Origin: Cellulomonas aerilata
Lineage (GTDB): Bacteria; Actinomycetota; Actinomycetes; Actinomycetales; Cellulomonadaceae
Reading direction: 5' to 3'
DNA: 64,000 nucleotides
Assembly (NCBI RefSeq): GCF_007991755.1
Contig: NZ_BJYY01000001.1
Location: 558,001-622,000 of the forward strand
In this document: piece by piece, positions 12,870-34,988 of the stretch
How the letters are laid out: each line of letters begins with the position of its first letter
Position numbering within the stretch: position 1 is the stretch's first letter
Notes under the pieces: generated by a model
What the model was told of the DNA's origin: nothing
The model's input: only the letters and a program-made list of their open reading frames with translations
Databases searched by the model: none
Made by a program: the position numbers and the translations under genes

Positions 12870-12878
12870 GCGCGAGCC

Positions 12879-13310: not shown

Positions 13311-13360
13311 GCCTCCAGACTATGTCCGGGGCGGCGGCGTGACGGGCCTACGCTGAACGG

Positions 13361-13690
13361 ATGCCGTTGGTGACCTACTCCGCGCTCCGCCTGGGGCTGC
13401 TGGCCGCGTGCTTCGCGCTCGGGTACTGGGCCGGGCTGCGCACGTGGCTGCTGCTCCTCGTGGCGACGTTCTCGGCGTGGGGCCTTTCGTACGTGCTGCT
13501 GGCGCGGCAGCGGGAGGCGGCCGCCGTCCACCTGGCCGAGCGCGCCGCCCGGCGCGCCGGCGGCGGGCGCCGGTTCCCGGCCGCGGCGGAGTCCGACGCC
13601 GCGCACGAGGACGCCCTGGACGACGCCGCCCGGTCCGGTGCCGCAGCGCCGCCCGTCCCGGACGACGAGCCGGGCCGCGACCGGCCCTAG
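13361..13690 (+). CDS. DUF4229 small membrane protein
   Basis: A 109-residue protein with two adjacent transmembrane helices in the first ~50 residues (LRLGLLAACFALGYWAGL; TWLLLLVATFSAWGLSYVLL) followed by a charged, Ala-rich cytosolic tail. This matches DUF4229, a family of unknown function that in actinobacteria tends to sit near cytochrome c maturation and menaquinone genes, as here. Its TAG stop shares the palindrome CTAG with the stop of the convergent glycoside hydrolase gene, so the two genes overlap at their ends by 4 bp. Confidence 0.82.
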   Translation: MPLVTYSALRLGLLAACFALGYWAGLRTWLLLLVATFSAWGLSYVLLARQREAAAVHLAERAARRAGGGRRFPAAAESDAAHEDALDDAARSGAAAPPVPDDEPGRDRP

Positions 13691-15801
13691 CCGGGCCGGC
13701 GGACGTCGTCCGGCACGACCAGCCGCAGGACCTGCACCCCGTAGGCCGCCAGCTCCACCGTGGTCACCTCGGGGCCCCCGTCCAGCGGCGCCAGCGTCCC
13801 CCGGGCGAGCACCGGCCGGACGCGGGCCTCGGCGTCGGTCATGTTGACCAGCCACACGAGCGTGTGCCCGTCCTCGTGCACCAGCTCGCCGACGACGACG
13901 TCCGGGGAGTCCACCCGGACCGCCGGCTGGGCGCCGGCCTCCGCCGCGAGCGCCGCGTACAGGCGCCAGGTCGCGTCGGGGTTCACGGCCGGCAGCAGGG
14001 ACGCCATGTGCTCCAGCGGGTAGGTGCACAGCACCGCCTGCCCGTCCCCGAGCCGGTGCCGCAGCAGTGCGGGGCGTCCCCGGCCGTCCCGGGCGACGAC
14101 CTCGGCGCCGACCGGCTCGACCGGCAGGTAGGCCCGGGAGTCCTCGGTGCCCGCGGTGCGGAACCGCAGGGTCTCCCCGGCCGGGATCCCGCCGAACGGG
14201 GTCTCGAAGCGGAGCTCCACGACGTCGTCCTCGATCGCGTCGACCAGGCCGTACCGGGTCAGCTTCCGGACCCCGAACAGCTCGTGCATCGTCGGCCACC
14301 AGGGCCCGCGCTGGTTCGGGTGCGTGCCGGTGAAGTACGAGCAGTAGACGGTGGCCCCGCCCCGGGCGAGCCTGCCCAGCTGCACCCACGTCGGGGAGGT
14401 GAGGTGCTTGACGGACGGGACGAGGTAGAGCGCGGCGTCGTCGGGCAGGCCCGGTCCCTCGGCGGCCGGGTCGAGCTGGCCGGCCTCGAGCTCCACCCGG
14501 CCGTCGCGCGGGACGACGGCGCGCCCGTACTGCACCCCGCCGCGGGCGACGCCGTCGGCCAGGTCGCGCGCGGTGCCTGGCTGCCACAGGACGGCGTCGG
14601 CCTCCCGCACGAGGACGACCGGCAGGTCCGCGTGGCGCGCCGAGACGTACGCCTGCCGCAGCGTGGCGGCGATGGTGGGGCCGTCGGACGGGTCGGTGAA
14701 CGGGTACTGGTTGTCCAGCCAGCTCGACACGACCAGGGCGATCGACGAGTCCGGGCGCGAGCACCGGGCGACGTCGACCCGCTCGAGCAGCGCGGCGAAG
14801 TCCCGCATCTCGCGGGCCTGCGGCTTGGGGACGCCCGCGGCGTCGACCAGGCCGAAGTGCTGCTCGAACGGCCGGTGGGTGTAGGGCGCCTGCCGGTACA
14901 GGTGGTCGAGGTCGGTGTTGTTCCACGCCAGCCACCCGGTCGCCCCGGCGAGCAGCGTGTGGTGCAGCAGCTGGCGGTAGTAGTGGGCGCCGTTCTCGTC
15001 GCTCGTGTAGTCCGAGGTGACCCCGAACTCCTCCATGACGACGGGCTTGCCCGAGCGGTGCAGCAGCTCGCAGACGAAGGCGGCGCCCAGCAGCTGACGG
15101 GACTGGTCGGTCTCCATCCGGTACACGTGCGGCCCGAGGAAGTCGACGAGCGGGGCGAGGTCGCGGACGCGGAAGCCGTTGTCCCGGCCGGTGACCTCCA
15201 CGCCCCACGCGCCCTCGCCGATGCTCACCGGCTGCGTCCCGCCGCCGGCACGCACGGCGTCGAGGAGGATCTGCGACCAGCTGCTCACCTCGTCGGGGTC
15301 CAGGACGTCGTCGCCGCGGGAGCGCCAGTCGGCGTAGATGGGGATCTCGTTGGTCAGCAGCCAGCCGGCCACGGCCGGGTGGTCGTGCAGCCGGGCGGTG
15401 AGCTCGCGCACGTACCAGGCCTGGCGGGCGACGAACCACACGTCCCGGAACAGGTGCCGCCCGCCGCGCCACGCCGGGTCCCAGTTCTGGCCCGACATGT
15501 GCCCGACGAGGAACGTCGGGATGCTGCTCATCCCCAGTGCGCTGTGCCGGTCGAGGAAGTCCCGGAAGCGGTCGACGAGCCCCTCGTCGATGGTGTCCGG
15601 GGTGGGGTGGAAGTCCGGCCAGTAGAAGAAGGAGCGCGTCACCGTCATGCCGTGGGCGCGCATGGTCTCGAGCTCGGACTGCACGACGTCGCCGTCGTAG
15701 GACCGCCACATGAGCGGGCCGCCGGTGCGGGACCAGAAGTTGACCCCGACCCAGTGCTGCGGCCGGCCGTGGTGGACGACGGCCGGGGACGGGCGCTTCA
15801 C
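13687..15801 (-). CDS. Intracellular glycoside hydrolase, cellulase/GH5-like (clan A)
   Basis: A 704-residue protein with an N-terminal (beta/alpha)8 clan-A hydrolase domain: the acid/base is in LLTNEIPI (Asn151-Glu152) and the nucleophile in VVMEEFG (Glu257/258). About 300 residues follow, with beta-galactosidase-like trimerisation and Greek-key character (DSIALVV.., LPDDAALYLVPS, LVWLVNMTD). There is no signal peptide, so it acts on imported sugars or glycosides. The GTG start at 15801 overlaps the stop of a crotonase gene (GTGA), making it the last gene of the catabolic minus-strand operon served by a CUT1 importer. Exact specificity (mannoside, glucoside, other) cannot be read from sequence. 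Confidence 0.8.
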   Translation of the reverse strand: MKRPSPAVVHHGRPQHWVGVNFWSRTGGPLMWRSYDGDVVQSELETMRAHGMTVTRSFFYWPDFHPTPDTIDEGLVDRFRDFLDRHSALGMSSIPTFLVGHMSGQNWDPAWRGGRHLFRDVWFVARQAWYVRELTARLHDHPAVAGWLLTNEIPIYADWRSRGDDVLDPDEVSSWSQILLDAVRAGGGTQPVSIGEGAWGVEVTGRDNGFRVRDLAPLVDFLGPHVYRMETDQSRQLLGAAFVCELLHRSGKPVVMEEFGVTSDYTSDENGAHYYRQLLHHTLLAGATGWLAWNNTDLDHLYRQAPYTHRPFEQHFGLVDAAGVPKPQAREMRDFAALLERVDVARCSRPDSSIALVVSSWLDNQYPFTDPSDGPTIAATLRQAYVSARHADLPVVLVREADAVLWQPGTARDLADGVARGGVQYGRAVVPRDGRVELEAGQLDPAAEGPGLPDDAALYLVPSVKHLTSPTWVQLGRLARGGATVYCSYFTGTHPNQRGPWWPTMHELFGVRKLTRYGLVDAIEDDVVELRFETPFGGIPAGETLRFRTAGTEDSRAYLPVEPVGAEVVARDGRGRPALLRHRLGDGQAVLCTYPLEHMASLLPAVNPDATWRLYAALAAEAGAQPAVRVDSPDVVVGELVHEDGHTLVWLVNMTDAEARVRPVLARGTLAPLDGGPEVTTVELAAYGVQVLRLVVPDDVRRPG

Positions 15802-16601
15802 GGTCCGGACGCCCCGGCGGCCCACGCGGGGCGGCGGCGCTCGCGGAAGGCCCGCACCCCCTCGTGGAAGTCCGCGCTGCCGTACACCTCGGTGTAGACG
15901 TCGTCCGAGCGCACCGCCGCGGCCAGGTCGTCCAGGCGCCGGCCGAAGGTCTTGGCCGCGGCGACGGACAGCGGCGCGCACACCACGACGCGCTCCACCA
16001 GCTCCGCCAGGACCGCGTCCAGCCTCTCGGCGGGCGCGACGGTCCGCACCAGCCCGGCGGCGAGCGCCTCGTCCGCGGTGGCCAGCCGCCCGGTCAGCAG
16101 CAGCTCGGTCGCCAGGGCGCGTCCCAGCGCGGCGCGCATCCGGGCGGTCGTCGCCGGTGACACGCAGTTGCCGAGCGTGCGGGCGACCGGCGCCCCGAAG
16201 ACCGCGGCCGGGGTCGCGTAGACGAGGTCGCAGCAGGCCACGATCGCCAGACCGCCCCCGACCGCCGGTCCGTCGACGAGCGCCACGACGGGCACCGGCA
16301 GCGCCCGCACCGCGTCCAGCACGGCGGTGATCTCGGCCTCGTAGGCGACGCCGTCCGCCCCGTCGGCGATGACCTCGAGGTCCGCGACGTCCGTCCCCGC
16401 CGCGAAGGCCCCGCCCGCCCCGCGGACGGCGACGACGCGGACCGTCGGGTCGGCGGCCAGGTCGAGGCAGTGCCGCCGCAGGTCGGCGTACATGGCCGAC
16501 GTCAGGGCGTTGCGCCGGCCTGGGTTGTCGAACGTGATGGTGGCCAGCGGTCCGGAGCGCACCAGCTCGGTGCGCCCCGGCCCGCTGTCGCCCTGCGTCA
16601 C
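15798..16601 (-). CDS. Crotonase-fold protein (enoyl-CoA hydratase/isomerase family)
   Basis: A 267-residue crotonase-superfamily protein: NPGRRNALTSAMY near residue 28, the oxyanion segment FAAGTDVADL (about 70) and GPAVGGGLAIVACCD (about 110). The residues equivalent to both catalytic glutamates of classical enoyl-CoA hydratase appear replaced (GGGLAI instead of GGGCEL; FGAPVARTLGN instead of GQPE). A different CoA-ester reaction than simple hydration is therefore likely. It is paralogous to the protein encoded at 21744-22538, sharing AGTD and PVARTLGNCV. It lies 28 bp after an RraA-like gene and is coupled to the hydrolase gene by a GTGA overlap. Confidence 0.85.
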   Translation of the reverse strand: MTQGDSGPGRTELVRSGPLATITFDNPGRRNALTSAMYADLRRHCLDLAADPTVRVVAVRGAGGAFAAGTDVADLEVIADGADGVAYEAEITAVLDAVRALPVPVVALVDGPAVGGGLAIVACCDLVYATPAAVFGAPVARTLGNCVSPATTARMRAALGRALATELLLTGRLATADEALAAGLVRTVAPAERLDAVLAELVERVVVCAPLSVAAAKTFGRRLDDLAAAVRSDDVYTEVYGSADFHEGVRAFRERRRPAWAAGASGP

Positions 16602-16629
16602 GCGGGCACCCGCGTGCAGTGCGGTCCGG

Positions 16630-17373
16630 TCACCGGACGCTCTCGTCGAGCTCCCAGCCCAGCGTCTGGTACATCCGCCGGCGGCCCGCCTTGTCGTTCT
16701 CGTTCTCCTGCCGGGCGTACTGCGCCACCTGCTCGGCCACCTCGAACGGCACGGCGATGACGCCGTCGCCGTCCCCGAGCACGATGTCGCCGTGCTTGAT
16801 CTGGACCCCGCCGACGCTCACCGGGATCTTGGCGGCCTCGTACTCCACCCGGCCCTGGGTCATGGCCTGGTTGCGGTACTGCGCGAAGATCGGCACGCCC
16901 TGCGCCCGGCACTCGTCGCGGTCCCGGCAGCCGCCGGAGGTGACGACCGCCGCGGCGCCCTTGATGTGCCAGTCGAGGGAGTTGTAGGACCCGATCTCCC
17001 CGACGCCGCAGTCCGGGGACTCGAGCACGACGATGTCGCCGGGCTCCAGCTCGGCGTCCCACGGGGAGTGCATGACCTCGCCGTACCAGTACTCGCGGGC
17101 CCACTTGGTGTAGTCCTCGCCGACGATCTGCGGGACCTGCTTCTGGCTGACCCGCGAGCGCACGGTGAACGCCGCCCCGCAGAACTTCATGCCCTCGGCG
17201 ATGGACTGAATGTCGCGGTGCACGCTGCCCTTGTTGGGCATGCCGATCCAGTCCAGCCCGTCGCGGACGTCCGACACCCGCAGCCCCTGGAACAGGGCCA
17301 CCAGCTCCTGCTTGGTCTTGGTGGTCCCCGTGGCGGGGCTCGTGCTCGTGCCGTTGTCGCTCGTCGTGGTCAT
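16630..17373 (-). CDS. RraA-like aldolase family protein (copy 1)
   Basis: A 247-residue member of the RraA/HMG-aldolase family, with a short disordered N-terminus. The conserved segment VVTSGGCRDRDECRAQG contains the Arg-Asp-x-x-Glu signature of 4-hydroxy-4-methyl-2-oxoglutarate/oxaloacetate-type divalent-metal aldolases, rather than RNase E-inhibitor RraA. These enzymes cleave 2-oxo-4-hydroxy acids to pyruvate or glyoxylate-type products. The ATG at 17373 follows GGAGACAGACG. It lies within the catabolic operon 86 bp after the aldehyde dehydrogenase gene; the gap has repeats. A second, diverged copy is at 28103-28867. Substrate unknown. Confidence 0.82.
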   Translation of the reverse strand: MTTTSDNGTSTSPATGTTKTKQELVALFQGLRVSDVRDGLDWIGMPNKGSVHRDIQSIAEGMKFCGAAFTVRSRVSQKQVPQIVGEDYTKWAREYWYGEVMHSPWDAELEPGDIVVLESPDCGVGEIGSYNSLDWHIKGAAAVVTSGGCRDRDECRAQGVPIFAQYRNQAMTQGRVEYEAAKIPVSVGGVQIKHGDIVLGDGDGVIAVPFEVAEQVAQYARQENENDKAGRRRMYQTLGWELDESVR

Positions 17374-17394
17374 GCTCGTCTGTCTCCTTCGACG

Positions 17395-17437
17395 TGGGTC
17401 GTGCGTGGTCGTCGTGCGTGGTGGTCGTCGTGCGTGA
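17395..17437. repeat. Short direct repeats between RraA-like and aldehyde dehydrogenase genes
   Basis: Three consecutive copies of a GTCGTGCGTG-containing unit of 12-16 bp fill the 86-bp gap. They look like replication-slippage expansion. No hairpin strong enough to call a terminator was seen. Confidence 0.6.
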
Positions 17438-17459
17438 CGTGCCGTGCTCGGTGCGCCGC

Positions 17460-18896
17460 CTACCAGCTCGCGGCGACGTACTTGGTCTCCGTGTACTCCA
17501 GCAACCCCTCCCCACTTCCCTCCCGGCCCAGCCCGCTCTCCTTGACGCCGCCGAACGGCGCGGCAGGGTCGGAGACGAGCCCGCGGTTCACCGCGACCAT
17601 CCCGGCCTCCAGCCGGTCGGCCACCCGCAGCGCCCGGCCGAGGTCGGCCGAGTAGACGTAGGACACGAGCCCGTACTCGGTGGCGTTCGCGGCCGCGATC
17701 GCCTCCTCGTCGCTGTCGACGACGACGACCGGCGCGACCGGGCCGAAGACCTCCTCGCGCAGGACGGCGGCGTCGGCGGGCACGTCGACGAGGACGGTCG
17801 GCGGGTAGAAGCACCCGTCACCGGCCCGGCCGCCGACGAGCGCGCGGGCCCCGCGCGCCACGGCGTCGTCGACCAGGCGGACGACCTTGTCCACGCTCGG
17901 GCGGTCCACGAGCGGGCCGCACTCGGTCCCGGGCTGCTTGCCGTCCCCCACCCGGATCGCGCCCATGCGGGCGGCGAGGCCGGCCGTGAACCGCTCGTGC
18001 ACGGACCGGTGGACGTAGAACCGGTTCGCCGCGGTGCACGCCTGACCGCCGTTGCGCATCTTGGCGACCATCGCCCCGTCGAGGGCGGCGTCGACGTCGG
18101 CGTCGGCCAGGACGAGGAACGGCGCGTTCCCGCCGAGCTCCAGCGCGCAGCGCAGCACCCGGTCGGCGGCCGTGCGCTGCAAGATCTTGCCGACCTCGGT
18201 GGATCCGGTGAACGACAGCATGCGCACCGCGGGGTGGTGCAGCATCGCGTCCACGACGGGGCCGGGGTCGGTGGTGGTCACCACGTTGACCACGCCCGCC
18301 GGGACGCCGGCCTCGGTGAGCAGGTCGGCCACGGCCAGCGCGGTCAGCGGGGTCTCGGCGGCGGGCTTGAGGACCGTGGTGCACCCGGCGGCCAGCGCGG
18401 GCGCGATCTTGCGGGTCGCCATGGCCGCCGGGAAGTTCCACGGCGTGATCAGCACCGCGACGCCGATCGGCTCGTGCCGCACGAGGATCTGGTTCGCCCC
18501 GCTCGGGGCGGTGGACAGGCGCCCGGGGATCCGCACCGCCTCCTCGGCGTACCACCGGAAGAACTCCGCGGCGTAGGCGACCTCGGACCGCGCGTCGGGG
18601 AGCGCCTTGCCGTTCTCGGTCGAGATGAGCAGCGCCAGCTCCTCGGCCCGGTCGGTCATCAGCTGCCACGCGCGACGCAGCACCTCCGCCCGCTGCCGCG
18701 GCGGTGTCGCGGCCCAGCCGGCGGCCGCGGCGACGGCGGCCTCCACCGCGTCGAGCGCGTCGTCCGGTCCGGCGTCGGTCACCGAGGCGACCACCGCGCC
18801 GGTGGCCGGGTCCTGGACGTCGAAGGTGGCGCCGGACGCCGCGGGGCGCCAGGCGCCGCCCACCAGCAGGCCGGTCGGTCCGGTCGTGGTCGTCAT
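17460..18896 (-). CDS. NAD(P)-dependent aldehyde dehydrogenase, succinate-semialdehyde-type
   Basis: A 478-residue aldehyde dehydrogenase with standard motifs: ITPWNFP (about residue 150), cofactor segment LSFTGSTEVGK (about 227), ELGGNAPF with Glu253, and GGQACTAANRF with catalytic Cys287. The overall pattern is closest to succinate/glutarate semialdehyde dehydrogenases, but related enzymes oxidise alpha-ketoglutarate semialdehyde or glycolaldehyde in sugar-acid pathways. Its start is one base after the stop of the Fe-alcohol dehydrogenase gene, so the two probably oxidise an alcohol to an acid in sequence. The ATG at 18896 gives the usual family length; upstream frame has no coding character. 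Confidence 0.9.
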   Translation of the reverse strand: MTTTTGPTGLLVGGAWRPAASGATFDVQDPATGAVVASVTDAGPDDALDAVEAAVAAAAGWAATPPRQRAEVLRRAWQLMTDRAEELALLISTENGKALPDARSEVAYAAEFFRWYAEEAVRIPGRLSTAPSGANQILVRHEPIGVAVLITPWNFPAAMATRKIAPALAAGCTTVLKPAAETPLTALAVADLLTEAGVPAGVVNVVTTTDPGPVVDAMLHHPAVRMLSFTGSTEVGKILQRTAADRVLRCALELGGNAPFLVLADADVDAALDGAMVAKMRNGGQACTAANRFYVHRSVHERFTAGLAARMGAIRVGDGKQPGTECGPLVDRPSVDKVVRLVDDAVARGARALVGGRAGDGCFYPPTVLVDVPADAAVLREEVFGPVAPVVVVDSDEEAIAAANATEYGLVSYVYSADLGRALRVADRLEAGMVAVNRGLVSDPAAPFGGVKESGLGREGSGEGLLEYTETKYVAASW

Positions 18897-18897
18897 G

Positions 18898-20295
18898 TCA
18901 GGCCACCCCTCTGCTCGGGCTCGGGCGCGCACCGGTCGGCACGGCGTCGTCGTGCGCTGCGTCGTCGTGCTGCTCGACCGGTCCGGCCGGGGACAGGTCC
19001 CCGCGGTGGGCGGCACGCAGGATGCTCAGCGCGGCCGCCTCGTCCAGCGGTCGCGGGTTGTTCTCGACGAGGCGTCGGGCGCTCATCGCCTCGTGCGCGG
19101 CCCACGCGAGCCGGTCCTCCGGCATCCCGAGCGCGTCCAGCGTCCGCGGGATGCCGACGGACGCGAGCAGGTCGGCGACCGCGGTGACGGCGGCATGCGC
19201 GCGCGTCGTGTCGTCGCTGCCGTCGCCGTCGTCCCTGCCCTCCCGGGCGGCGGCCGGCGTGCCCCCGGGCACCCCGGAGCTCAGCGCCCGGCCGACCTCC
19301 GCCAGCTCGGCGGTGCGGGCGGGGAGGTTGAAGGCCATGACGTACGGGATGAGCGTCCCCACGCCGATGCCGTGCGGGGTGTGGGTCAGTCCGCCGACGG
19401 GGTACTGCAGGGCGTGCGCGGCCGCGGTGCCCGCCGTCCCGAACGCGAGGCCGCCGGCGAGCGCGGCCAGCATCATGCCCGAGCGGGCGGCGAGGTCGTC
19501 GGGGTGCGAGCACGCCCGGGCGAGGTGGGCCGCGGCCTGGCGGATCCCCAGCAGCGCGAACGCGTCGGTCAGCTCGCCCTTGCCCACGAACACGCGGTCG
19601 GTGGACAGGTCGGGCGTCGGGGGGCGCCGGACGGCGGTGTACGCCTCGAGGCAGTGCACGAGGGCGTCCGCCCCGGCCGCCGCGCTGACCCCCGGCGGGC
19701 ACGACACGGTCAGCTCGGGGTCGCAGACGGCGGCCGCCGGGATGAGGTGCGGGCTGGAGATCCCGATCTTCATCGTGCGCTCGGGGTCGGCCAGCACCGC
19801 GACCGGCGTCACCTCCGACCCGGTGCCCGCGGTGGTGGGGACCGCGACGACGGGGACCACCGGACCGGGGACGCGGTTCTCGCCGTAGTAGTCCTGGGGG
19901 CGGCCGCCGTGCGCGAGGCACAGCGCGACGACCTTGGCCAGGTCGAGGCAGCTGCCGCCGCCGAACCCGACGACGACGTCGGCGGCGTGCGCACGGGCCT
20001 GCCGGGTCGCCTCCTCGACCTGGTCGACGGGCACCTCGGGCAGGGCCTGGTCGAAGACGTCCACCTCGACCCCCGCCGCGCGCAGGCCGTCCACGAGGTC
20101 GCGCAGGGCGGGGTCGGCGCCCAGCCGCGGGTCGGTGACGACGGTCGCCCTCGTGCCGTGGCGCAGCACGGCGCGGGGGACCGCGGCCCGCTGCCCGACG
20201 CCGAGGAGGATCTCCCGGGGGGCGCGCAGCAGCCCGAACAGGGGCAGGGGCGGCAGGGCCCCGGCCGCAGGTGGGGTGCGCTCAGGCTCGGTCAC
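18898..20295 (-). CDS. Iron-containing (group III) alcohol dehydrogenase
   Basis: A 465-residue Fe-ADH family enzyme. An NAD-binding GFGGGSCLD loop lies at about residue 110, then PTTAGTGSEVTPVAV near 155. Metal ligands are seen in GADALVHCLEAY (Asp and His, about 210) and GGLTHTPHGIGVG (His-x-x-His, about 305). It interconverts an alcohol and aldehyde or ketone with NAD(H). It has about 60 extra residues, mostly a charged insert around EGRDDGDGSDD and a His/Asp-rich C-terminal tail. Its first 14 bp overlap the gamma-carbonic-anhydrase-like gene, and the aldehyde dehydrogenase follows immediately. Confidence 0.9.
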   Translation of the reverse strand: MTEPERTPPAAGALPPLPLFGLLRAPREILLGVGQRAAVPRAVLRHGTRATVVTDPRLGADPALRDLVDGLRAAGVEVDVFDQALPEVPVDQVEEATRQARAHAADVVVGFGGGSCLDLAKVVALCLAHGGRPQDYYGENRVPGPVVPVVAVPTTAGTGSEVTPVAVLADPERTMKIGISSPHLIPAAAVCDPELTVSCPPGVSAAAGADALVHCLEAYTAVRRPPTPDLSTDRVFVGKGELTDAFALLGIRQAAAHLARACSHPDDLAARSGMMLAALAGGLAFGTAGTAAAHALQYPVGGLTHTPHGIGVGTLIPYVMAFNLPARTAELAEVGRALSSGVPGGTPAAAREGRDDGDGSDDTTRAHAAVTAVADLLASVGIPRTLDALGMPEDRLAWAAHEAMSARRLVENNPRPLDEAAALSILRAAHRGDLSPAGPVEQHDDAAHDDAVPTGARPSPSRGVA

Positions 20296-23737: not shown

Positions 23738-23772
23738 TCGTGCCTCTCCTCGACTCGGTCGGTGCCGCCGGT

Positions 23773-23806
23773 GGTGGTCCGGCGCGCCGGAGCGCGCCGG
23801 ACCACC
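23773..23806 (-). terminator. Hairpin between sugar-binding-protein gene and CoA-transferase gene
   Basis: A perfect 15-bp stem (23773-23787 with 23792-23806) and CGGA tetraloop lies 15 bp after the binding-protein stop. It would end or attenuate the transporter transcript, or protect its 3' end so that the binding-protein mRNA stays abundant. Confidence 0.8.
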
Positions 23807-23820
23807 GGGTCAGCGCTGCG

Positions 23821-25200
23821 TCACTGCGCCCCGAAGGCCGCGTTGACCTCGGCGATGAAGGCGGCCGCCGCGTCCTCGGGGCTGGTCCCGCCGAGCGAGA
23901 CCGTCTCGTAGGCACGGTTGAACGCCGTCTCGAAGTTGGCCTGGTACCCCGCGGGGTAGCTGACCGTCGGCGGCTTGGCCTCGATGACCTGCTGGTACAG
24001 CTCGAGCTCGTGCTTCTTCAGCGCGGGCAGCTCGGGGTTGTCCAGCTGCTGCTGCAGGTGCCGGGTGTTCGTCACCCCGCCGTTGTTCGACGCGAACAGC
24101 GCGGCCGCCTCGTCGTTGTTGGCCCAGAAGTCGATGAAGGCCGCCGCGGTGGGGACGTTGTCGCAGTTCGCCGAGATGGCCCAGCCCGAGGTGAACAGCA
24201 CGTTCCCGGAGCCGCCCTCGCCGGACGGCATCGCCACGGTGGTCAGCTCCTGACCCGGCGCCAGGCCCGACAGGGTCGCCTGCCCGGGCGTCAGGGCGTT
24301 GCCCGGGACGCTGTCGAGCATGACCTTGCCCTGGGCGACGTAGCGCTGCTCGGTCTGCGGCGGCTCCTCCGCGCGCTGCTGCGCGGTGCTGGTGGCGCCG
24401 GCGTTGCGCAGGTCCTCCCAGAACGTCCAGAACTCGGCGAGGGTCTCCTCGGAGAACGCGATCTGGTCGTCCTCGAACATCTCCTCCCCGCGGGCCTGGG
24501 TCCACGCGATGAAGTAGTTCGGCAGCCCGCCGCCGAGGTTCGCGGCGGCGATGCCCTCGGGCAGCGACCCCTGGGCCTCGGTGATGTACTCCCCGAAGTC
24601 CTCCCAGGTGTAGCCCTCCTCGGGGAGCCCGACGCCGGCCTGCTCGGCGAGCGTCGCGTTGATCTCGACGGCGTCGTAGGCGGCGCCGTAGGGGATGAAG
24701 TAGAGCCCCCCGTCGGGGCCGCGGCCGGTGTCGATGACCTCCTCGGGGATGTCGGGCACCGTGATCGCCCCGGACTCGATGAGCGGGTCCAGGTCCATGA
24801 GCGCGCCCTGGGTGGCGTACGAGGCCAGCTGGCGACCCTGCATCTGCGGCACGCAGGGGAGGTTGCCGCTGGAGCCCTGGACGTTGAGCCGCTCGAAGTA
24901 CGCGGCGAAGTCGGCGGACTCGGGCTCGACCGTGACGCCCGGGTTCTCGGCCACGAACAGGTCCGAGACGCCGTTGGTGAGGTCGACACGCGGCCCCGAG
25001 CCCCAGTAGGCGATCCGGAGCGTGCCCTCGACGTCGCCGAGGCCGGCCTCGGCGCCGGAGGCCTCGGGCGCGGCCGACTCCTGCGTCGTCTCACCGACGC
25101 GGGTGCCGCCGGAGCAGGCGGTCAGGACGAGCGTGAACGTCGCCGCGCCGGCGACGAGGCCGAGCGCGCGCCGCCGCGGACGGGTGTGTGGAGACATCAT
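23821..25200 (-). CDS. Sugar ABC transporter substrate-binding lipoprotein (CUT1-like)
   Basis: A 459-residue extracellular solute-binding protein family 1. It has a Sec lipoprotein signal with lipobox LVLTAC (Cys about residue 28), a Ser/Glu-rich linker, then the mature domain starting LRIAYWGSGPR. Typical features include a hinge region around YFIPYGAAYDAVEINATLAEQAG and TSGWAISANCD. It would capture an oligosaccharide or glycoside and deliver it to the two permeases encoded upstream in the same operon (94-bp gap). No ATPase gene is present; CUT1 systems in actinobacteria often share an MsiK-type ATPase encoded elsewhere. The ligand is not predictable. Confidence 0.92.
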   Translation of the reverse strand: MMSPHTRPRRRALGLVAGAATFTLVLTACSGGTRVGETTQESAAPEASGAEAGLGDVEGTLRIAYWGSGPRVDLTNGVSDLFVAENPGVTVEPESADFAAYFERLNVQGSSGNLPCVPQMQGRQLASYATQGALMDLDPLIESGAITVPDIPEEVIDTGRGPDGGLYFIPYGAAYDAVEINATLAEQAGVGLPEEGYTWEDFGEYITEAQGSLPEGIAAANLGGGLPNYFIAWTQARGEEMFEDDQIAFSEETLAEFWTFWEDLRNAGATSTAQQRAEEPPQTEQRYVAQGKVMLDSVPGNALTPGQATLSGLAPGQELTTVAMPSGEGGSGNVLFTSGWAISANCDNVPTAAAFIDFWANNDEAAALFASNNGGVTNTRHLQQQLDNPELPALKKHELELYQQVIEAKPPTVSYPAGYQANFETAFNRAYETVSLGGTSPEDAAAAFIAEVNAAFGAQ

Positions 25201-25294
25201 CGTTTCCTCTCGAGTGGTGCACGGACGGCGGCTCGTCGAGCGGCCGGGAAGGAGGGGGTCGGGACGGTGCCGGGGCGTGACGCCGGCGTGCGGG

Positions 25295-26200
25295 TCACTT
25301 GAGCCCGCTGGTGGCGATGCCCTCGATGAGCAGCTTCTGCGCGACTAGGAAGAAGCCGACGATCGGTGCGAGCGACAGCGTCGCCATCGCGAACAGGGGA
25401 CCGAAGGCGGACTCGCCCGTGGCGTCCAGGAACCCGTTGAGCCCCTGGGTGACGGTCCACTTCGCCGGGTCGTTGAGGTACAGGAGCGGGCCGAGGAAGT
25501 CGTCCCAGGTCCGGATGAAGGTGAACAGCGCGGTGGTCCCGAGGGCCGGCAGCGACAGCGGCAGGATCACCCGGCGGAAGATGCCCACGTGGCCGCAGCC
25601 GTCCAGCCGGGCGGCGTCGTCCAGCTCACGCGGCAGCGTCCGGATGAACTGCACCATCAGGAAGATGAAGAACGCGTCGGTGGCGAGGAACTTGGGAACC
25701 GTCAGCGGCAGGATCGTGTTGATCCACGCCAGGTTGTTGAAGAGCACGTACTGCGGCACGAGCGTCACGTGGTACGGCAGCAGCAGCGTCCCGAGCATGA
25801 GCGCGAACATGACCCGCTTGAACGGGAACTCCAGCCGGGCGAAGGCGTAGGCGGCGAGCGAGCAGGAGACGACGTTGCCGATGATGCACAGCACCGAGAT
25901 CACCAGGGAGTTCACGAAGTACCGGGAGAAGTTGAGGCTGCCGTAGCTCCAACCGGTCGCGTAGTTCTCCAGCGTGAAGTTCGAGGGCCACAGGCCGAGC
26001 GTCCCGAACGCCTCGTTGCTCGGTCGCACGGACGCCCCGGCCATCCAGAGCAGGGGGTACAGGACGACGACCAGCACCAGCAGCAGGCTGAGGTGGCGCG
26101 CGAGCGAGATGACGACCCGGTTGCGCGAGGGCCGGCGCGGGAAGACGGGGCGCAGCAGCGCCGGCGTCGCGGAGGTCGGGCTGGGGGTGGCCGTGGTCAT
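25295..26200 (-). CDS. Carbohydrate ABC transporter permease (MalG-like)
   Basis: A 301-residue inner-membrane permease with six predicted helices. The EAA loop signature for ATPase contact is ELDDAARLDGCGHVGIFRRVILPL (residues about 195-218; written in two halves, ELDDAARLDGCG and the following LP). YPLLWMAGASVRPSNE in TM1 and WDDFLGPLLYL toward the end are typical of MalG-type CUT1 subunits. Its ATG overlaps the stop of the companion permease gene (ATGA). It precedes the binding-protein gene and belongs to the importer feeding the catabolic island. Confidence 0.93.
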   Translation of the reverse strand: MTTATPSPTSATPALLRPVFPRRPSRNRVVISLARHLSLLLVLVVVLYPLLWMAGASVRPSNEAFGTLGLWPSNFTLENYATGWSYGSLNFSRYFVNSLVISVLCIIGNVVSCSLAAYAFARLEFPFKRVMFALMLGTLLLPYHVTLVPQYVLFNNLAWINTILPLTVPKFLATDAFFIFLMVQFIRTLPRELDDAARLDGCGHVGIFRRVILPLSLPALGTTALFTFIRTWDDFLGPLLYLNDPAKWTVTQGLNGFLDATGESAFGPLFAMATLSLAPIVGFFLVAQKLLIEGIATSGLK

Positions 26201-27204
26201 CTCTCGTCTCCGTAGTAGACCCAGAACCGGGCGGTGGCGAACATGAAGGCGGTGAACAGACCCAGGACCACGGTGAGCGCCCACGCCATGGCCGACGCGT
26301 ACCCCATCTCCAGCTGCGTGAAGCCGCGCTGGTAGAGGTAGAGCGTGTAGAAGAGCGTCGAGTCCAGGGGTCCGCCGTTGCCGTTGCTGATCACGTACGC
26401 CGGGGTGAACGCCTGGAAGGCGTTGACGGTCGTCAGCAGGACGTTGAAGAAGATGAGCGGCGTGAGCGTCGGCAACGTGATGCTGAAGAAGCGCCGCAGG
26501 GGGCCGGCGCCGTCGACCATGGCCGCCTCGTAGAGCTCCTTGGGGACCTGCCGCAGGCCCGCGAGGAAGATGATCATCGGGGCGCCGAACGTCCAGACGC
26601 TGAGCGCGACCAGCGAGTACAGCGCGGTGTCGGGGTTGCCGATCCAGCTCTGCCCCTCGATGCCCAGCCGGGCGAGGAAGGCGTTGAAGACGCCGTCGCC
26701 GCCGAACATGGTGCGCCACAGCATCGAGATCGCGACGCTCGCGCCCACCAGGGACGGCAGGTAGAACGACGCCCGGTAGAAGGGCAGGAACCGGATGCCC
26801 TGGTTGAGCACCATCGCGACGAGCATCGAGACGATCAGGATGAGCGGGACGGCGACGGCGACGTACTCCAGCGTCACCCCGACCGACGCCTTGAACCGCG
26901 GGTCCACGAGCATCCGCTGGTAGTTGGCCAGGCCCTGCCACTCGGGCGGGGTGAGCAGGTTGTACCTCGTGAACGACAGGTACAGGGAGTAGGCCATCGG
27001 ACCGAGGGTCAGCAGGAGCATCCCGGCCAGCCACGGGGTGAGGAAGCCGTACGCCGCGAGGGCCTCGCGTCGCGCCTGCCCGCTCGCGCGACGCCCGTGC
27101 GAGGAGCCCGGGTCGGTCAGGTCGTCGACGTCGGGCAGCACCGAGGTCCGGTCACCGCGCCGACGGACGCCCGCGCCCGTCAGCCTCGAGTCCTTGGTGG
27201 TCAC
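26197..27204 (-). CDS. Carbohydrate ABC transporter permease (MalF-like)
   Basis: A 335-residue permease with a ~50-residue basic cytosolic N-terminus, then TM helices beginning YGFLTPWLAGMLLLTLGPM. The MalF-type periplasmic-side motif SFTRYNLL and the EAA loop ELYEAAMVDGAGPLRRFF (about residue 230) are present. It forms the import pore with the MalG-like partner. The GTG at 27204 overlaps the stop of the HIBADH-like gene (GTGA), so transporter and dehydrogenase are translated together. Confidence 0.93.
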   Translation of the reverse strand: MTTKDSRLTGAGVRRRGDRTSVLPDVDDLTDPGSSHGRRASGQARREALAAYGFLTPWLAGMLLLTLGPMAYSLYLSFTRYNLLTPPEWQGLANYQRMLVDPRFKASVGVTLEYVAVAVPLILIVSMLVAMVLNQGIRFLPFYRASFYLPSLVGASVAISMLWRTMFGGDGVFNAFLARLGIEGQSWIGNPDTALYSLVALSVWTFGAPMIIFLAGLRQVPKELYEAAMVDGAGPLRRFFSITLPTLTPLIFFNVLLTTVNAFQAFTPAYVISNGNGGPLDSTLFYTLYLYQRGFTQLEMGYASAMAWALTVVLGLFTAFMFATARFWVYYGDER

Positions 27205-28082
27205 GACGCACCTCCTCGGCCTGCCCGCGCCTGGGCGGCGTGGGTCTCCACCCGGTCGGCGAGGGTCTGCGCGATCAGCGCGGCGACCGGCACGCGCAGG
27301 TCCACGGCGCGCGCGGCGGCGACGACCTCGAAGAGGTCCTTGCTCCACGGCCGCTCGCGCGGCGGGGTCCCGCCCGCCTCGTACGACTCGACGAGCCGGT
27401 CGAAGAAGCCCCAGTTGCGGGTGACCCACGAGTCGCCGGTGCTCGACGCCACCGACCGCAGCACGGTGTCCTCGTCGACGCCGTGCGCGGCGGCGAGCTC
27501 CATGGCCTCCATGGCACCGGCGAGCGCGGACAGCATCATGAGCTGGTTGGCCAGCTTGGTCGCCGCCCCGGCCCCGGCCGGACCGACGAGCAGCACCTCG
27601 CTGCCCATGGCCTCCAGCAGGGGCCGCGCGGCCTCCAGGTCGTCGGCCTCGCCGCCGACCATGATGGTCAGGTCGCCCTTGTCGGCCCGCTCGGCGCCGC
27701 CGCTGACCGGGGCGTCGAGGAACGCGACGCCCTGCTCGGCCGCGACGGTGGCGAGCCGTGCTGCGGTCTCCGGCATGATCGTGCTGTGCACGACGACCGT
27801 GCGCCCGTCACCGCCGGCCGCGAGCCAGCCGTCCGGCCCCTCGAGGATCGACCCCACGGCGGCGTCGTCGGGGACGACGAGCACGAGCGTGTCGCACCCG
27901 CCGAGGTCCGCGACGGAGCCCGCGACCCGGGCGCCGTCACGCTCGAGCGCCTCGGCCTTCTCGGGCGAGGTGTCCAGCACGGTGAGCGACCATCCTGCGC
28001 GCAGGAGGGTGGCCGCCATCGGGCGGCCGATGTTGCCCAGCCCGGCGAAGCCGATGCTGCTGGTCCCAGGCGACGCTGCCAT
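27201..28082 (-). CDS. Beta-hydroxyacid dehydrogenase, HIBADH/tartronate-semialdehyde-reductase family
   Basis: A 293-residue NAD(P)-dependent dehydrogenase. The Rossmann motif GFAGLGNIGRPMA is at about residue 10; the substrate-binding DAPVSGGAERA at about 125; the catalytic Lys is in GAGAATKLANQ (about 175). The family includes 3-hydroxyisobutyrate dehydrogenase, 6-phosphogluconate-related enzymes and tartronate semialdehyde reductase. Position between an RraA-like aldolase gene and sugar permease genes suggests reduction of a small semialdehyde released by aldol cleavage; this is inference. ATG at 28082 is 20 bp after the aldolase stop. Confidence 0.88.
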   Translation of the reverse strand: MAASPGTSSIGFAGLGNIGRPMAATLLRAGWSLTVLDTSPEKAEALERDGARVAGSVADLGGCDTLVLVVPDDAAVGSILEGPDGWLAAGGDGRTVVVHSTIMPETAARLATVAAEQGVAFLDAPVSGGAERADKGDLTIMVGGEADDLEAARPLLEAMGSEVLLVGPAGAGAATKLANQLMMLSALAGAMEAMELAAAHGVDEDTVLRSVASSTGDSWVTRNWGFFDRLVESYEAGGTPPRERPWSKDLFEVVAAARAVDLRVPVAALIAQTLADRVETHAAQARAGRGGAS

Positions 28083-28102
28083 GAGATCGGTGTCCCCTCG
28101 GG

Positions 28103-28867
28103 TCAGAGGTCGGCGTAGTACGCGAGGACGGCGTCGGCGTCGATGGACGCGTCGGCGGGCTTGCCCTGGGCGGCGTAGTGCCGGCTCCGGGCACGCATGT
28201 CGGCGAGCAGGATCGCCCGGGCGTGGGTGGCCACCTCCTCGGCGACCTCCTGCGGCACGACGACGACGCCGTCGTCGTCGCTGCCCACCATGTCGCCGGG
28301 GCGGACCTGGACGCCGCCGCAGGCGATGGTCCCCTGGACCTCGACGACCTCGATGCGTCCCGGGATGATCGTGCGGCCGCGGTGCCGGGCGACCACGGGG
28401 CCGCGCTGCAGGACGACCTCGCCGGTGTCCCGGCAGTAGCCGTCGGTGATGATGCCGACCGCGCCCTTGCCGACCGCGGCCATCGTGTTCTCCGAGCCCC
28501 AGAACCCCACCTCGGGGCCGCCGCCGGACTCCATAACGATCACGTGGCCGGGCGGGAGGTCGTCGGGGAGGTTCTTGTGGCCGTACCGCTCGAACCACAG
28601 GCGGTGCGCCTCGACGATGTCCTGCGTCGAGTCGAGCTTCCACATGGGCTTGTTCGACGGGACGCACCGGATGGTCGCGGCCTGCCCCCAGAAGCGCATG
28701 CCGCTCCACAGCGGCCGCAGCTCGGGCGACATGAGCGTGAGGTTGAAGTAGCCGATCCCGTCCAGGGCGTCGGCGACGTCGGCGACCCGCAGGTGCTTGT
28801 ACAGGCTGTTCAGATCGTTGCGGTCGGCCTTGGCGACCTCGGCGATGACGTGCTCGGAGAGCGACAT
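28103..28867 (-). CDS. RraA-like aldolase family protein (copy 2)
   Basis: A 254-residue RraA-family protein, first gene of the minus-strand catabolic transcript. GIITDGYCRDTGEV (about residues 135-148) carries the Arg-Asp-x-x-Glu signature of metal-dependent HMG/CHA-type aldolases; EVQGTIACGGVQVRPGDMV and DGVVVVPQE are further family hallmarks. It is only distantly similar to copy 1 at 16630-17373, so the two may cleave different intermediates. The ATG at 28867 follows GAGAGGAACCC. The 181-bp region to the divergent gntR gene contains a TTGT-N2-ACAA operator. Confidence 0.84.
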   Translation of the reverse strand: MSLSEHVIAEVAKADRNDLNSLYKHLRVADVADALDGIGYFNLTLMSPELRPLWSGMRFWGQAATIRCVPSNKPMWKLDSTQDIVEAHRLWFERYGHKNLPDDLPPGHVIVMESGGGPEVGFWGSENTMAAVGKGAVGIITDGYCRDTGEVVLQRGPVVARHRGRTIIPGRIEVVEVQGTIACGGVQVRPGDMVGSDDDGVVVVPQEVAEEVATHARAILLADMRARSRHYAAQGKPADASIDADAVLAYYADL

Positions 28868-28955
28868 GGGTTCCTCTCGGGCGGGGCGGGCGTGCGCCGG
28901 TGGTCCGCCCCGGAGTGGAGTCCCAGGGTGTAGCCCGCCGTCGCGCTATGGCCTA

Positions 28956-28965
28956 TTGTCTACAA
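28956..28965. promoter_or_regulatory. Putative GntR/FCD operator in the divergent catabolic promoter region
   Basis: TTGTCTACAA is a TTGT-N2-ACAA inverted repeat, the form of operator recognised by many FCD-type GntR regulators. It lies in the 181-bp region between the RraA-like gene (minus) and gntR (plus), in a locally AT-rich patch. A second overlapping symmetry, GTCT-N5-AGAC, follows immediately. Confidence 0.55.
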
Positions 28966-29048
28966 CAGACGACACAAGAGGCGCAAGGGCCGGATCTGCG
29001 TCACGCTCGTCCTGGACGCCGTCGTCCCCGCGGCCCGTGGGAGGTCCC

Positions 29049-29807
29049 GTGAACACCACCGCCAAGCCCCTCGTGGGGTCCACCACGGCGCTGACGGCGC
29101 CCGTGCTCACCGCGCCCCGGGAGCCGGCCGGCCCCCGGATCGACGCGCCGAGCCTCGTGCACCTGGCCGCCGAGGAGATCCGCAAGATGATCCTGTCCGG
29201 GCGGCTGGCCCCCGGGGACCGGCTCATCGAGGAGCGGCTCACCGAGGAGCTGGGCATCAGCCGGCCGCCGCTGCGCGAGGCGCTGCGGCTGCTGCAGCAC
29301 GAGGGCCTGATCGAGACCCGGCCGCGACGCGGCTCGACGGTGACGATCCTCACCGACCAGGACGTGTTCGAGATCCTCACGCTGCGGTCCGCCCTGGAGC
29401 GCCTCGCGGTCGAGCTCGGCATCCCGGTGCGCGACCCCGCACGGCTGGCGGCGTGCCGCGACGCCCTCGAGCGCATGGAGCGGGACGCGCGTGACGAGGA
29501 CCGCGGCAGCCTCGTGGAGCACGCCTACGTGTTCCACGCGTCGATCGTCGCGCTGGCCGGGCACGGTCGGCTGGACGACTCCTACGCCGCCGTCCAGCAG
29601 CAGCTGATGCTGTGCATGGCGCGCAACCTCTACACCCGCGAGCACGAGTTCGAGACCTTGACCCAGCACGTCGACCGCCACCGGCACCTGCTCGACGTCA
29701 TCGAGGCGGGCGACCCGGACGCGGTGCTCGCCGAGCTCGCCGTCCACGGAGAACGTTCGTTCCTCAAGCGCTCGACCACGGCCGCGACGGAGGGGCCGCC
29801 CACATGA
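29049..29807 (+). CDS. GntR-family regulator, FCD subfamily
   Basis: A 252-residue regulator with an N-terminal GntR winged helix after a ~35-residue Ala/Pro/Thr leader: IRKMILSGRLAPGDRLIEER, ELGISRPPLREALRLLQHEG and the wing RPRRGSTVTIL (about residues 45-105). A C-terminal all-helical FCD domain follows with metal/ligand histidines (FHASIVALAGH; HRHLLDVIEAGD). GTG at 29049 is chosen because upstream frame is low-complexity. It overlaps the next gene by ATGA and is divergent from the catabolic operon, so it most likely senses a pathway acid and represses both units through the site at 28956. Confidence 0.9.
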   Translation: MNTTAKPLVGSTTALTAPVLTAPREPAGPRIDAPSLVHLAAEEIRKMILSGRLAPGDRLIEERLTEELGISRPPLREALRLLQHEGLIETRPRRGSTVTILTDQDVFEILTLRSALERLAVELGIPVRDPARLAACRDALERMERDARDEDRGSLVEHAYVFHASIVALAGHGRLDDSYAAVQQQLMLCMARNLYTREHEFETLTQHVDRHRHLLDVIEAGDPDAVLAELAVHGERSFLKRSTTAATEGPPT

Positions 29808-30763
29808 CACCGACCGTCCTCATCACCGACAACGACATGGGCCCGGCCGACCTCGAGCGCGCGGCCCTCGAGCCGGCCGGCTACCGGGTGGTGCACGCGG
29901 AGTGCCGGACGGAGGACGACGTCCTGGAGGCCCTGCGCTCGCACCGCCCGGTGGGGCTGCTCGTGCAGTACGCCCCGATCACCGAGCGCGTGCTGCGGGC
30001 AGCGGCCGACACGGACGTGAAGGCCCTGTTCCGGTACGGCATCGGGATGGACAACGTCGACCTCGCCGCCGCCCGGACGCTGGGGATCGAGGCCCGGAAC
30101 GTCCCGGACTACGGCTCGGCCGAGGTGGCCAACCACGCGACCACGCTCCTGCTGTCCCTCCTGCGCGGGGTCCCCGCGTGGTCCGCCGCCGCCGCCCGCG
30201 GCGAGTGGCCGGTCCGCGGCGACCTGCCCGACCCCCTGGAGGTCGGCGTGTGCACGCTCGGCCTGCTCGGCTTCGGGGCGATCGCCCGGGAGGTCGGCGT
30301 CCGCGCCCGGGCGTTCGGGATGCGGGTGCTCGCCCACGACCCCTTCGTCGCCGACGACGACGTCCGCGCGGCCGGGGCCGAGCCGGTGGCGTTCGAGGAC
30401 CTGTGGCGGGGCAGCACCGCGGTCAGCGTCCACGCGCCGCTGACCTCCGCGACCGAGGGCGTCGTCGGCGCCGATGCGCTGTCCCTCATGGCGCCCGGGT
30501 CGTTCCTCGTCAACACCGCGCGCGCGGGGCTGGTCGACCGCACCGCGCTCGAGGCGGCCCTCGCCGAGGGCCGGCTGGCCGGCGTCGGCCTGGACGTCTG
30601 GTGGCAGGAGCCGGCGGCCGCCGACGACCCCCTGCTGCGTGACCCCCGGGTCCTCGTGACCCCCCATGTCGCCTGGCTCTCGCCGGGTTCGGTGCGCCGC
30701 CTGCGCGCCTCGGCCGCCTCGCGGCTCCTCGACGTCCTCACCACCGGAGGTTCTCCCTCGTGA
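29804..30763 (+). CDS. D-isomer-specific 2-hydroxyacid dehydrogenase
   Basis: A 319-residue enzyme of the D-2-hydroxyacid dehydrogenase family. The catalytic-domain segment YGIGMDNVDLAAA is at about residue 80, the Rossmann motif LGLLGFGAIAREVG at about 150, the catalytic Arg in NTARAGLVD (about 235), Glu about 29 residues later, and His in TPHVAW (about 288). It interconverts a 2-oxo acid and a D-2-hydroxy acid with NAD(P)H. ATGA/GTGA overlaps with gntR and the FAH-family gene make a three-gene plus-strand operon. Confidence 0.9.
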   Translation: MTPTVLITDNDMGPADLERAALEPAGYRVVHAECRTEDDVLEALRSHRPVGLLVQYAPITERVLRAAADTDVKALFRYGIGMDNVDLAAARTLGIEARNVPDYGSAEVANHATTLLLSLLRGVPAWSAAAARGEWPVRGDLPDPLEVGVCTLGLLGFGAIAREVGVRARAFGMRVLAHDPFVADDDVRAAGAEPVAFEDLWRGSTAVSVHAPLTSATEGVVGADALSLMAPGSFLVNTARAGLVDRTALEAALAEGRLAGVGLDVWWQEPAAADDPLLRDPRVLVTPHVAWLSPGSVRRLRASAASRLLDVLTTGGSPS

Positions 30764-31626
30764 CCACACTCCTCGTCCAGCTCCCGGCCGCCGACGGACC
30801 GCGGTGGGTGGTGCGGCGCACCCAGGACGGCGCCACGGTCGACAGCTCGCTGCCCGTCACGCTCGCCGAGCTCCTCGCCCTGCCGCTCGCCGAGGCGCGG
30901 TCCGTCGTCGAGGGCGCGACCCACCCGGCCGGACCGGGCGACGGGACGGCCGAGGGGGTGCGCCCGCTGGCGCCCGTGGACCGTCAGGAGGTCTGGGCGG
31001 CCGGGGTGACGTACCGGCGCAGCCGCGACGGGCGGGCCGAGGAGTCCGCGCACGCGTCGATGTACGACCTGGTCTACGAGGCGGACCGCCCGGAGGTGTT
31101 CTTCAAGTCCACGCCCGAGCGGGTCGTGCCGGACGGCGAGCCGGTCGGGATCCGGGTCGACTCCGGCTGGGACGTCCCCGAGCCGGAGGTCGGGCTCGTG
31201 GTGAACAGCGGCGGGGAGCTGTTCGGGTACGTCGCCGGCAACGACATGAGCAGCCGCTCCATCGAGGGCGAGAACCCGCTCTACCTGCCGCAGGCCAAGG
31301 TCTACACCCGGTCCTGCGCGCTGGGTCCGGGGATCGTCCCGGCGTGGGAGCTCGGGGACGGGCCGCTCGGGGTGTCGGTGCGGATCGACCGGGCCGGCGA
31401 GACGGTGTTCGAGGGCACCACCGCGACCGACCAGATGAAGCGCACCTTCCCGGACCTGATGGACTGGCTGACCCGCGCCCTGGACTTCCCGGCCGGCGTC
31501 GTCCTGCTCACCGGGACCGGGCTGGTCCCGGACAGCTCCTTCACGCTCGCGGAGGGTGACGTCGTCACGGTCGACGTCGCCGGGGTCGGCACCCTCACCA
31601 ACCCGGTGGTCGTGGTCGGTCGGTGA
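30760..31626 (+). CDS. Fumarylacetoacetate-hydrolase-family protein
   Basis: A 288-residue FAH-fold enzyme. Metal-binding and active-site segments are visible: WDVPEPEVGLVVN (about residue 137, Glu ligands), GYVAGNDMSSRSIEGENPLYLPQAK (about 150-175) and TGTGLVPDSSFTLAEGDVV near the C-terminus. Related proteins split 2,4-diketo-3-deoxy sugar acids or dehydrate 2-keto-3-deoxy-pentonates in non-phosphorylative sugar pathways; others act in aromatic degradation. GTG at 30760 overlaps the preceding gene (GTGA). It ends the plus-strand arm of the catabolic island, 54 bp before the convergent menA. Confidence 0.87.
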   Translation: MTTLLVQLPAADGPRWVVRRTQDGATVDSSLPVTLAELLALPLAEARSVVEGATHPAGPGDGTAEGVRPLAPVDRQEVWAAGVTYRRSRDGRAEESAHASMYDLVYEADRPEVFFKSTPERVVPDGEPVGIRVDSGWDVPEPEVGLVVNSGGELFGYVAGNDMSSRSIEGENPLYLPQAKVYTRSCALGPGIVPAWELGDGPLGVSVRIDRAGETVFEGTTATDQMKRTFPDLMDWLTRALDFPAGVVLLTGTGLVPDSSFTLAEGDVVTVDVAGVGTLTNPVVVVGR

Positions 31627-31680
31627 CGCCCCGGGCTGGGCCTCGGTGGCCAGCTGCCTCGCCGGTCTGCTGCCCCCCGG

Positions 31681-32562: not shown

Positions 32563-32585
32563 GGTGGCTCCGTTCGGGCGTGCGG

Positions 32586-34984: not shown

Positions 34985-34988
34985 CCGG

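What the first reader, a model, noticed from the sequence alone, without database searches (positions are those of the whole stretch)
13687..31626. Eighteen-kilobase catabolic island with an unfamiliar mix of sugar-import, sugar-acid and CoA-ester enzymes
A CUT1 importer and an intracellular glycoside hydrolase sit in one overlapping operon with a CaiB CoA-transferase, two crotonases, two RraA-type aldolases, lactonase-like, gamma-CA-like, Fe-ADH, ALDH and HIBADH-like genes, plus a divergent GntR/2-hydroxyacid dehydrogenase/FAH operon. I know no described pathway with this combination. A possible logic: import a glycoside, hydrolyse it, oxidise and lactonise the sugar or aglycone, activate it with CoA, then cleave to central metabolites.
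Basis: partly seen in the sequence, partly recalled or inferred. Interest (0 to 1): 0.7.

Follow-up and report, generated by a model that had tools for sequence, protein, structure and literature searches.

The report
Acquired sugar-acid breakdown gene island
This bacterium carries, as one inserted block, 17 genes that look like a switchable import-and-breakdown route for an unknown sugar acid, in which a coenzyme-A step and an enzyme lacking the usual catalytic residues may replace a standard step.

Summary
In detail: 17 genes (14 minus strand, 3 divergent) fill 13687-31626 as named. In 3 of 4 congeners the flanking DUF4229 and UbiA genes are adjacent, so the 18 kb is an insertion. The divergent promoter has a GntR-type site, unique in the genome and repeated at the same place in related clusters. 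The FAH protein is nearest 2-keto-3-deoxy-D-arabinonate dehydratase, which points to a non-phosphorylative sugar-acid route. The island has no usual acid-sugar dehydratase; CaiB and a crotonase lacking both canonical glutamates may do that step on the CoA ester (inference). Against: the genome has such dehydratases elsewhere, and most other CaiB/crotonase pairs lack RraA, lactonase and FAH relatives. The glycoside hydrolase looks like an add-on: in four other places examined no CaiB is near it. Substrate and chemistry are untested.

The parts
13687..15801 (-). GH5-like glycoside hydrolase, 704 aa, no signal peptide evident by eye; NEIP and MEEFG motifs present; accessory module
   Evidence: Pfam Cellulase 25.8 bits against cut-off 23.5; PDB best 7bob endo-beta-mannanase 4.8e-27, then GH5_18 enzymes; motifs; no CaiB near it in four other places
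15798..16601 (-). ECH2, second crotonase of the TLGNC subfamily
16630..17373 (-). RraA2, RraA-like aldolase family
17460..18896 (-). ALDH, nearest NCBIfam SSADH subfamily (541.6 bits, cut-off 646.35)
18898..20295 (-). iron-containing alcohol dehydrogenase family
20282..20857 (-). hexapeptide protein like gamma-CA/PaaY/CaiE, all below cut-off; possible acyl-CoA thioesterase (inference)
   Evidence: AHADEHG and GHRAVLHG motifs
20854..21747 (-). Amidohydro_2 lactonase-like protein, Asn240 where 4dlf has Asp
21744..22538 (-). ECH1, crotonase of the TLGNC subfamily, next to CaiB
22535..23737 (-). CaiB type III CoA-transferase
23821..25200 (-). solute-binding lipoprotein of the ABC importer
25295..26200 (-). 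ABC permease 2
26197..27204 (-). ABC permease 1
27201..28082 (-). HIBADH/GarR-like beta-hydroxyacid dehydrogenase family
28103..28867 (-). RraA1, RraA-like aldolase family; 58% identical to Microvirga ossetica RraA
28953..28968 (.). predicted GntR operator (CTATTGTCTACAACAG); 13-base core unique in the genome
29049..29807 (+). GntR/FCD regulator
29804..30763 (+). D-2-hydroxyacid dehydrogenase, 319 aa, relatives annotated C-terminal binding protein
30760..31626 (+). FAH-family protein nearest 2-keto-3-deoxy-D-arabinonate dehydratase
13691..31680 (.). extent of the insertion between the DUF4229 gene (13361-13690) and UbiA (stop at 31681)

Best explanation
A horizontally acquired, GntR-controlled island for uptake and breakdown of a sugar acid or its lactone. 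Proposed flow: ABC import (ATPase encoded elsewhere); the amidohydrolase opens a lactone to the acid; CaiB makes the CoA ester; the glutamate-less crotonase removes water from the 2,3-dihydroxyacyl-CoA so that a 2-keto-3-deoxy acid arises (CoA freed by the hexapeptide protein or passed on by CaiB); then the FAH enzyme dehydrates a 2-keto-3-deoxypentonate to 2-oxoglutarate semialdehyde, which ALDH oxidises, and/or RraA splits the 2-keto-3-deoxy acid to pyruvate and an aldehyde for ALDH/Fe-ADH. Shown here: gene content, insertion, shared operator, conserved order of most genes, FAH kinship, absence of both canonical glutamates from ECH1 and ECH2. Inferred: substrate, order of steps, and above all the CoA-dependent dehydration (about 0.2 on its own).
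For: Empty site in 3 of 4 congeners. Operator core once in the genome, full palindrome at the same place in G200 and G121 and the same half-site in G472. Same order of most genes in G472 and G200; an overlapping set in Microvirga. FAH best solved relative is 2-keto-3-deoxy-D-arabinonate dehydratase, E 1.1e-53, sharing the PEPE, D and LPQ-K stretches; of three FAH relatives whose surroundings I viewed (329 records matched), one lies beside a YjhG/YagF D-xylonate dehydratase plus ALDH, one near mandelate-racemase-family, amidohydrolase and ALDH genes, one beside a C-terminal binding protein. The amidohydrolase is nearest L-fucono-1,5-lactonase. No IlvD/EDD or enolase-superfamily dehydratase in the island. 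Crotonase: no Glu at position 120 in 37 of 37 TLGNC sequences; Glu89 in 37 of 37 against 3 of 31 other crotonases.
Against: The genome has 2 IlvD/EDD and 5 enolase-superfamily genes over cut-off, one of the 5 being the gene at 36016-37053 of this window, any of which might supply the dehydratase. Of 20 TLGNC loci of 15 kb or more from named genomes, none has a relative of the window's RraA, amidohydrolase or FAH at the thresholds used, so CaiB and crotonase need not act on sugar acids. The second missing Glu is not special: it is absent from 69 of 72 crotonases collected and its absence in the 37 is built into the motif. No aldose 1-dehydrogenase family was found in the island. The lactonase-like protein is below cut-off and has Asn for the aligned Asp. 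ALDH, Fe-ADH, ECH2 and GH are not in the G200 cluster, and D-2HDH and FAH were not found beside GntR in G472. No structure could be predicted.
Confidence: 0.4

Rival explanations
1. An ordinary non-phosphorylative route (Dahms/Weimberg type) whose sugar dehydrogenase and dehydratase lie elsewhere in the genome; CaiB and the crotonases serve a second organic acid from the same source.
For: FAH kinship; 2 IlvD/EDD and 5 enolase-superfamily genes over cut-off in the genome; CaiB with such a crotonase occurs without relatives of RraA, lactonase or FAH in 20 of 20 loci of 15 kb or more from named genomes.
Against: CaiB and ECH1 lie in the middle of the row, joined by 4-bp overlaps to each other and to the lactonase-like gene, keep that place in G200 and G472, and are in the same cluster as RraA and an amidohydrolase in Microvirga.
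Confidence: 0.3
2. The crotonase splits the CoA ester by retro-aldol cleavage between C2 and C3, giving glycolyl-CoA and an aldehyde or glyoxylate; CaiB recycles CoA from glycolyl-CoA.
For: Of loci of 15 kb or more, TLGNC loci carry relatives of a BhcA-like aminotransferase in 7 of 20 (2 of 38 other CaiB loci), of a GlcD/YdiJ-like FAD/FeS enzyme in 8 of 20 (4 of 38), of an HbpS-like protein in 4 of 20 (0 of 38); in Caballeronia a TLGNC crotonase lies beside annotated glcDEF, glcC and tartrate dehydrogenase. HIBADH is GarR-like, below cut-off.
Against: This genome has no malate synthase match and no glyoxylate carboligase over cut-off; none of those glycolate genes is in the island; the query proteins came from TLGNC loci themselves and the loci are not independent.
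Confidence: 0.12
3. The island degrades a beta-mannoside or similar plant glycoside, the CoA enzymes handling the aglycone acid.
For: GH overlaps ECH2 by 4 bp and is nearest mannan-active GH5 enzymes in the PDB.
Against: GH relatives (8 of 394 class genomes, this one included) had no CaiB near them in the three neighbourhoods fetched and one plasmid; G200 has the cluster on C1 and its GH on C12.
Confidence: 0.1

Closest known systems
Non-phosphorylative pentose/deoxyhexose pathways (Routes I-III via 2-keto-3-deoxy acids; PMC6336799, abstract and passages read)
   Same: Lactonase, FAH-superfamily enzyme, aldolase or ALDH step, ABC importer and regulator in one cluster
   Different: No aldose 1-dehydrogenase or usual acid-sugar dehydratase in the island; CaiB, two crotonases and a hexapeptide protein instead; RraA as the only aldolase-like proteins
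caiTABCDE carnitine operon (recalled)
   Same: CaiB-type transferase + crotonase + hexapeptide protein
   Different: ABC sugar-type importer, lactonase, RraA, FAH; crotonase without the two glutamates; scores under the CaiB and CaiE cut-offs
CaiB + TLGNC crotonase + TRAP clusters of Rhodobacterales and others; function not found in my searches
   Same: Related CaiB/crotonase pair and GntR/FCD regulator
   Different: TRAP importer, class V aminotransferase and FAD/FeS oxidase instead of the ABC importer, lactonase, RraA and FAH

Membership tests
2-keto-3-deoxypentonate dehydratase (FAH superfamily, KdaD-like) | FAH-family sequence with the KdaD-type acidic and Lys residues | tested here: met
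   2q18 alignment 186 bits, PEPE / D / LPQ-K shared; that these are the active-site residues is recalled; activity not testable here
Canonical enoyl-CoA hydratase (ECH1, ECH2) | two catalytic glutamates (Glu144/Glu164, rat numbering recalled) | tested here: not met
   ECH1 and ECH2 have Ala and Val at the two columns; position 120 is never Glu in 37 TLGNC sequences; position 140 is fixed as I/V/L by the motif that chose them, and Glu there is rare in the wider set too, 3 of 72
Type III CoA-transferase (CaiB/BaiF) | CoA_transf_3 domain with the catalytic Asp | tested here: met
   449.8 bits, D150 invariant in 4 of 4; role of that Asp recalled
L-fucono-1,5-lactonase (cog3618) | over the NCBIfam cut-off; Asp as in 4dlf | tested here: not met
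   141.4 bits against 400; Asn240 in 7 of 7 aligned cluster members where 4dlf has Asp
Weimberg/Dahms pathway cluster | acid-sugar dehydratase (IlvD/EDD or enolase superfamily) in the cluster | tested here: not met
   none found in the island; such genes elsewhere in the genome
4-hydroxy-2-oxo acid aldolase (RraA/HMG/CHA aldolase) | RraA-like sequence with the RD motif; over an equivalog cut-off | tested here: inconclusive
   CRD motif kept in 4 of 4; all listed NCBIfam scores are under their cut-offs
carnitine operon proteins | CaiB/CaiE over NCBIfam cut-offs | tested here: not met
   110.7 against 413 and 118.5 against 305

The most novel reading that the evidence does not exclude
A CoA-dependent sugar-acid pathway: a type III CoA-transferase and a crotonase subfamily without the canonical glutamates (with family-invariant Glu89 and near-invariant Thr71) replace the metal-dependent acid-sugar dehydratase, feeding FAH and RraA branches.
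Probability: 0.2. Interest if true: 0.75.

Novelty: new variant of a known kind. Interest (0 to 1): 0.47.

Why it matters
If the CoA step is real, sugar-acid breakdown would have a thioester branch that none of my ten paper searches turned up, and a crotonase subfamily found in loci of several phyla would get a role. The operator and the small conserved gene set make it testable with a few proteins.

Tried and rejected
Mesaconate-, glutarate-, oxalate- and carnitine-type readings of CaiB: it is under every listed NCBIfam cut-off. Direct repeats at the island ends: only 9-10 bp GC-rich matches, so no attachment site is claimed; the one tRNA gene in the window is far from the ends. The sigma-70 scan found no site. 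Glyoxylate as end product in this host: kept only as a rival. Paper searches: 24, 44, 45 gave no paper; others gave listings without a matching pathway; 110 led to PMC6336799.

Biases and dropped rows. One search uses the 58 of 80 loci of at least 15 kb; its query proteins for the aminotransferase, FAD enzyme, HbpS and TRAP come from TLGNC loci, related species are not independent and P values are uncorrected. In one search four duplicate loci were dropped. The motif chose the 37, so I/V/L at 140, T143 and N146 are conserved by construction; position 120, E89 and T71 are not. The operator core was also seen in loci L025, L042 and L047, whose sites I did not place, and not in the Microvirga, L109 or L112 regions tested.
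Full report
What is there. The window belongs to a 4.06 Mb genome of 32 contigs. The minus-strand row runs RraA1, HIBADH-like, two ABC permeases, binding protein, CaiB, ECH1, Amidohydro_2, hexapeptide, Fe-ADH, ALDH, RraA2, ECH2, GH5-like; 7 of 13 junctions overlap. The plus-strand row is GntR/FCD, D-2-hydroxyacid dehydrogenase, FAH.

It is an insertion. In congeners G395, G396 and G397 the match to the DUF4229 gene (13361-13690) ends about 50-140 bp from the UbiA match, with the same flanking order on both sides. The fourth congener, G394, had only weak matches to the ccsB-like flank and was not placed. CaiB at E<=1e-100 was found in 3 of 99 relatives, this genome included, and in none of the four congeners; in the class sample in 16 of 394, this genome included.

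It is a unit. The intergenic region between RraA1 and GntR holds CTATTGTCTACAACAG. The core CTATTGTNNACAA occurs once in the genome, here. G200 and G121 have the full palindrome CTATTGTNNACAATAG in the region upstream of their GntR, G472 has the same half-site, and in Roseinatronobacter TATTGTNNACAA lies between the GntR and amidohydrolase genes; the Microvirga region tested showed none. G200 keeps FAH, D-2HDH, GntR, one RraA (in RraA1's place but nearer RraA2 in sequence), HIBADH, two permeases, binding protein, CaiB, ECH, amidohydrolase and hexapeptide, and then a helicase gene. G472 keeps GntR and the row down to ECH2 without ALDH, then its contig ends; no D-2HDH or FAH match lies next to its GntR. 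Microvirga ossetica has GntR, HIBADH, amidohydrolase, RraA, an ABC importer with its ATPase, CaiB and ECH; its RraA is 58%, CaiB 57% and ECH 48% identical, but its HIBADH only 33% and its amidohydrolase 25%.

What the parts suggest. FAH is nearest 2-keto-3-deoxy-D-arabinonate dehydratase. I viewed the surroundings of 3 of its 6 listed plasmid relatives (329 records matched): a D-xylonate dehydratase plus ALDH in Deinococcus, a C-terminal binding protein in Natronococcus (as here), and mandelate-racemase-family, amidohydrolase and ALDH genes in Haloarcula. The amidohydrolase is nearest L-fucono-1,5-lactonase but below cut-off and with Asn for Asp. With RraA and ALDH this resembles Routes I and II of PMC6336799 (abstract and passages read). 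What is missing from the island is the acid-sugar dehydratase, and CaiB plus crotonase occupy that place. Chemically, a CoA ester makes the C2 proton acidic and allows loss of the 3-hydroxyl; this is inference. The genome does hold 2 IlvD/EDD and 5 enolase-superfamily genes over cut-off, so an ordinary dehydratase from elsewhere is not excluded.

The crotonase. ECH1 and ECH2 share the motif P-V-A-R-T-L-G-N-C and have Ala and Val in the columns of the two glutamates of ordinary hydratases. Of the three PDB alignments shown, two have both glutamates and one (4k2n) only the first. In 37 TLGNC sequences position 120 is never Glu, Glu89 is invariant (3 of 31 in the others) and Thr71 is in 35 of 37 (0 of 31). 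Position 140 and T143/N146 are fixed by the motif, and Glu at 140 is rare in the whole set (3 of 72), so the first column and Glu89 are the telling ones. Canonical hydration is therefore unlikely for ECH1 and ECH2, though not excluded.

How far the link to sugar acids goes. Of 20 TLGNC loci of at least 15 kb from named genomes, none shows a relative of the window's RraA, amidohydrolase or FAH at the thresholds used, and 2 show HIBADH. More of them carry glycolate/glyoxylate-type genes than CaiB loci without the motif do, which supports the retro-aldol rival; but this genome has no malate synthase match and no glyoxylate carboligase over cut-off. So the sugar-acid reading rests on this island, G200, G472 and Microvirga.

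The glycoside hydrolase is probably an addition: 8 of 394 class genomes have it, this one included, and in the three neighbourhoods fetched and one Streptomyces plasmid no CaiB is near; two of these four have CUT1-type permeases next to it, and the plasmid also LacI and GH3.

Not established: substrate, direction of the dehydrogenases, which aldolase or dehydratase branch is used, and whether CaiB and ECH act on the same compound as the lactonase.

Noticed in passing
window 31681-37053 and 8989-13690: The island sits in a block with UbiA, an AMP-binding gene, DUF3048, an ECH-family gene and an enolase-superfamily gene on one side (menaquinone-like, inference) and a cytochrome c assembly gene on the other, in the same order in three congeners.
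   Followed up: partly
window 51282-51380: ARAGORN calls a 99-base tRNA-Ala(cgc), which seems long for a bacterial tRNA-Ala.
   Followed up: no
L028, L035, L048, L051, L053, L070, L125: Recurrent TRAP cluster with CaiB, a crotonase (TLGNC motif), BhcA-like aminotransferase, GlcD/YdiJ-like FAD/FeS enzyme and GntR (not every member adjacent in every locus).
   Followed up: partly
   Followed up: partly
L124:4010-10795: In Caballeronia grimmiae a TLGNC crotonase gene lies beside annotated glcDEF, glcC and tartrate dehydrogenase, without CaiB next to it.
   Followed up: no
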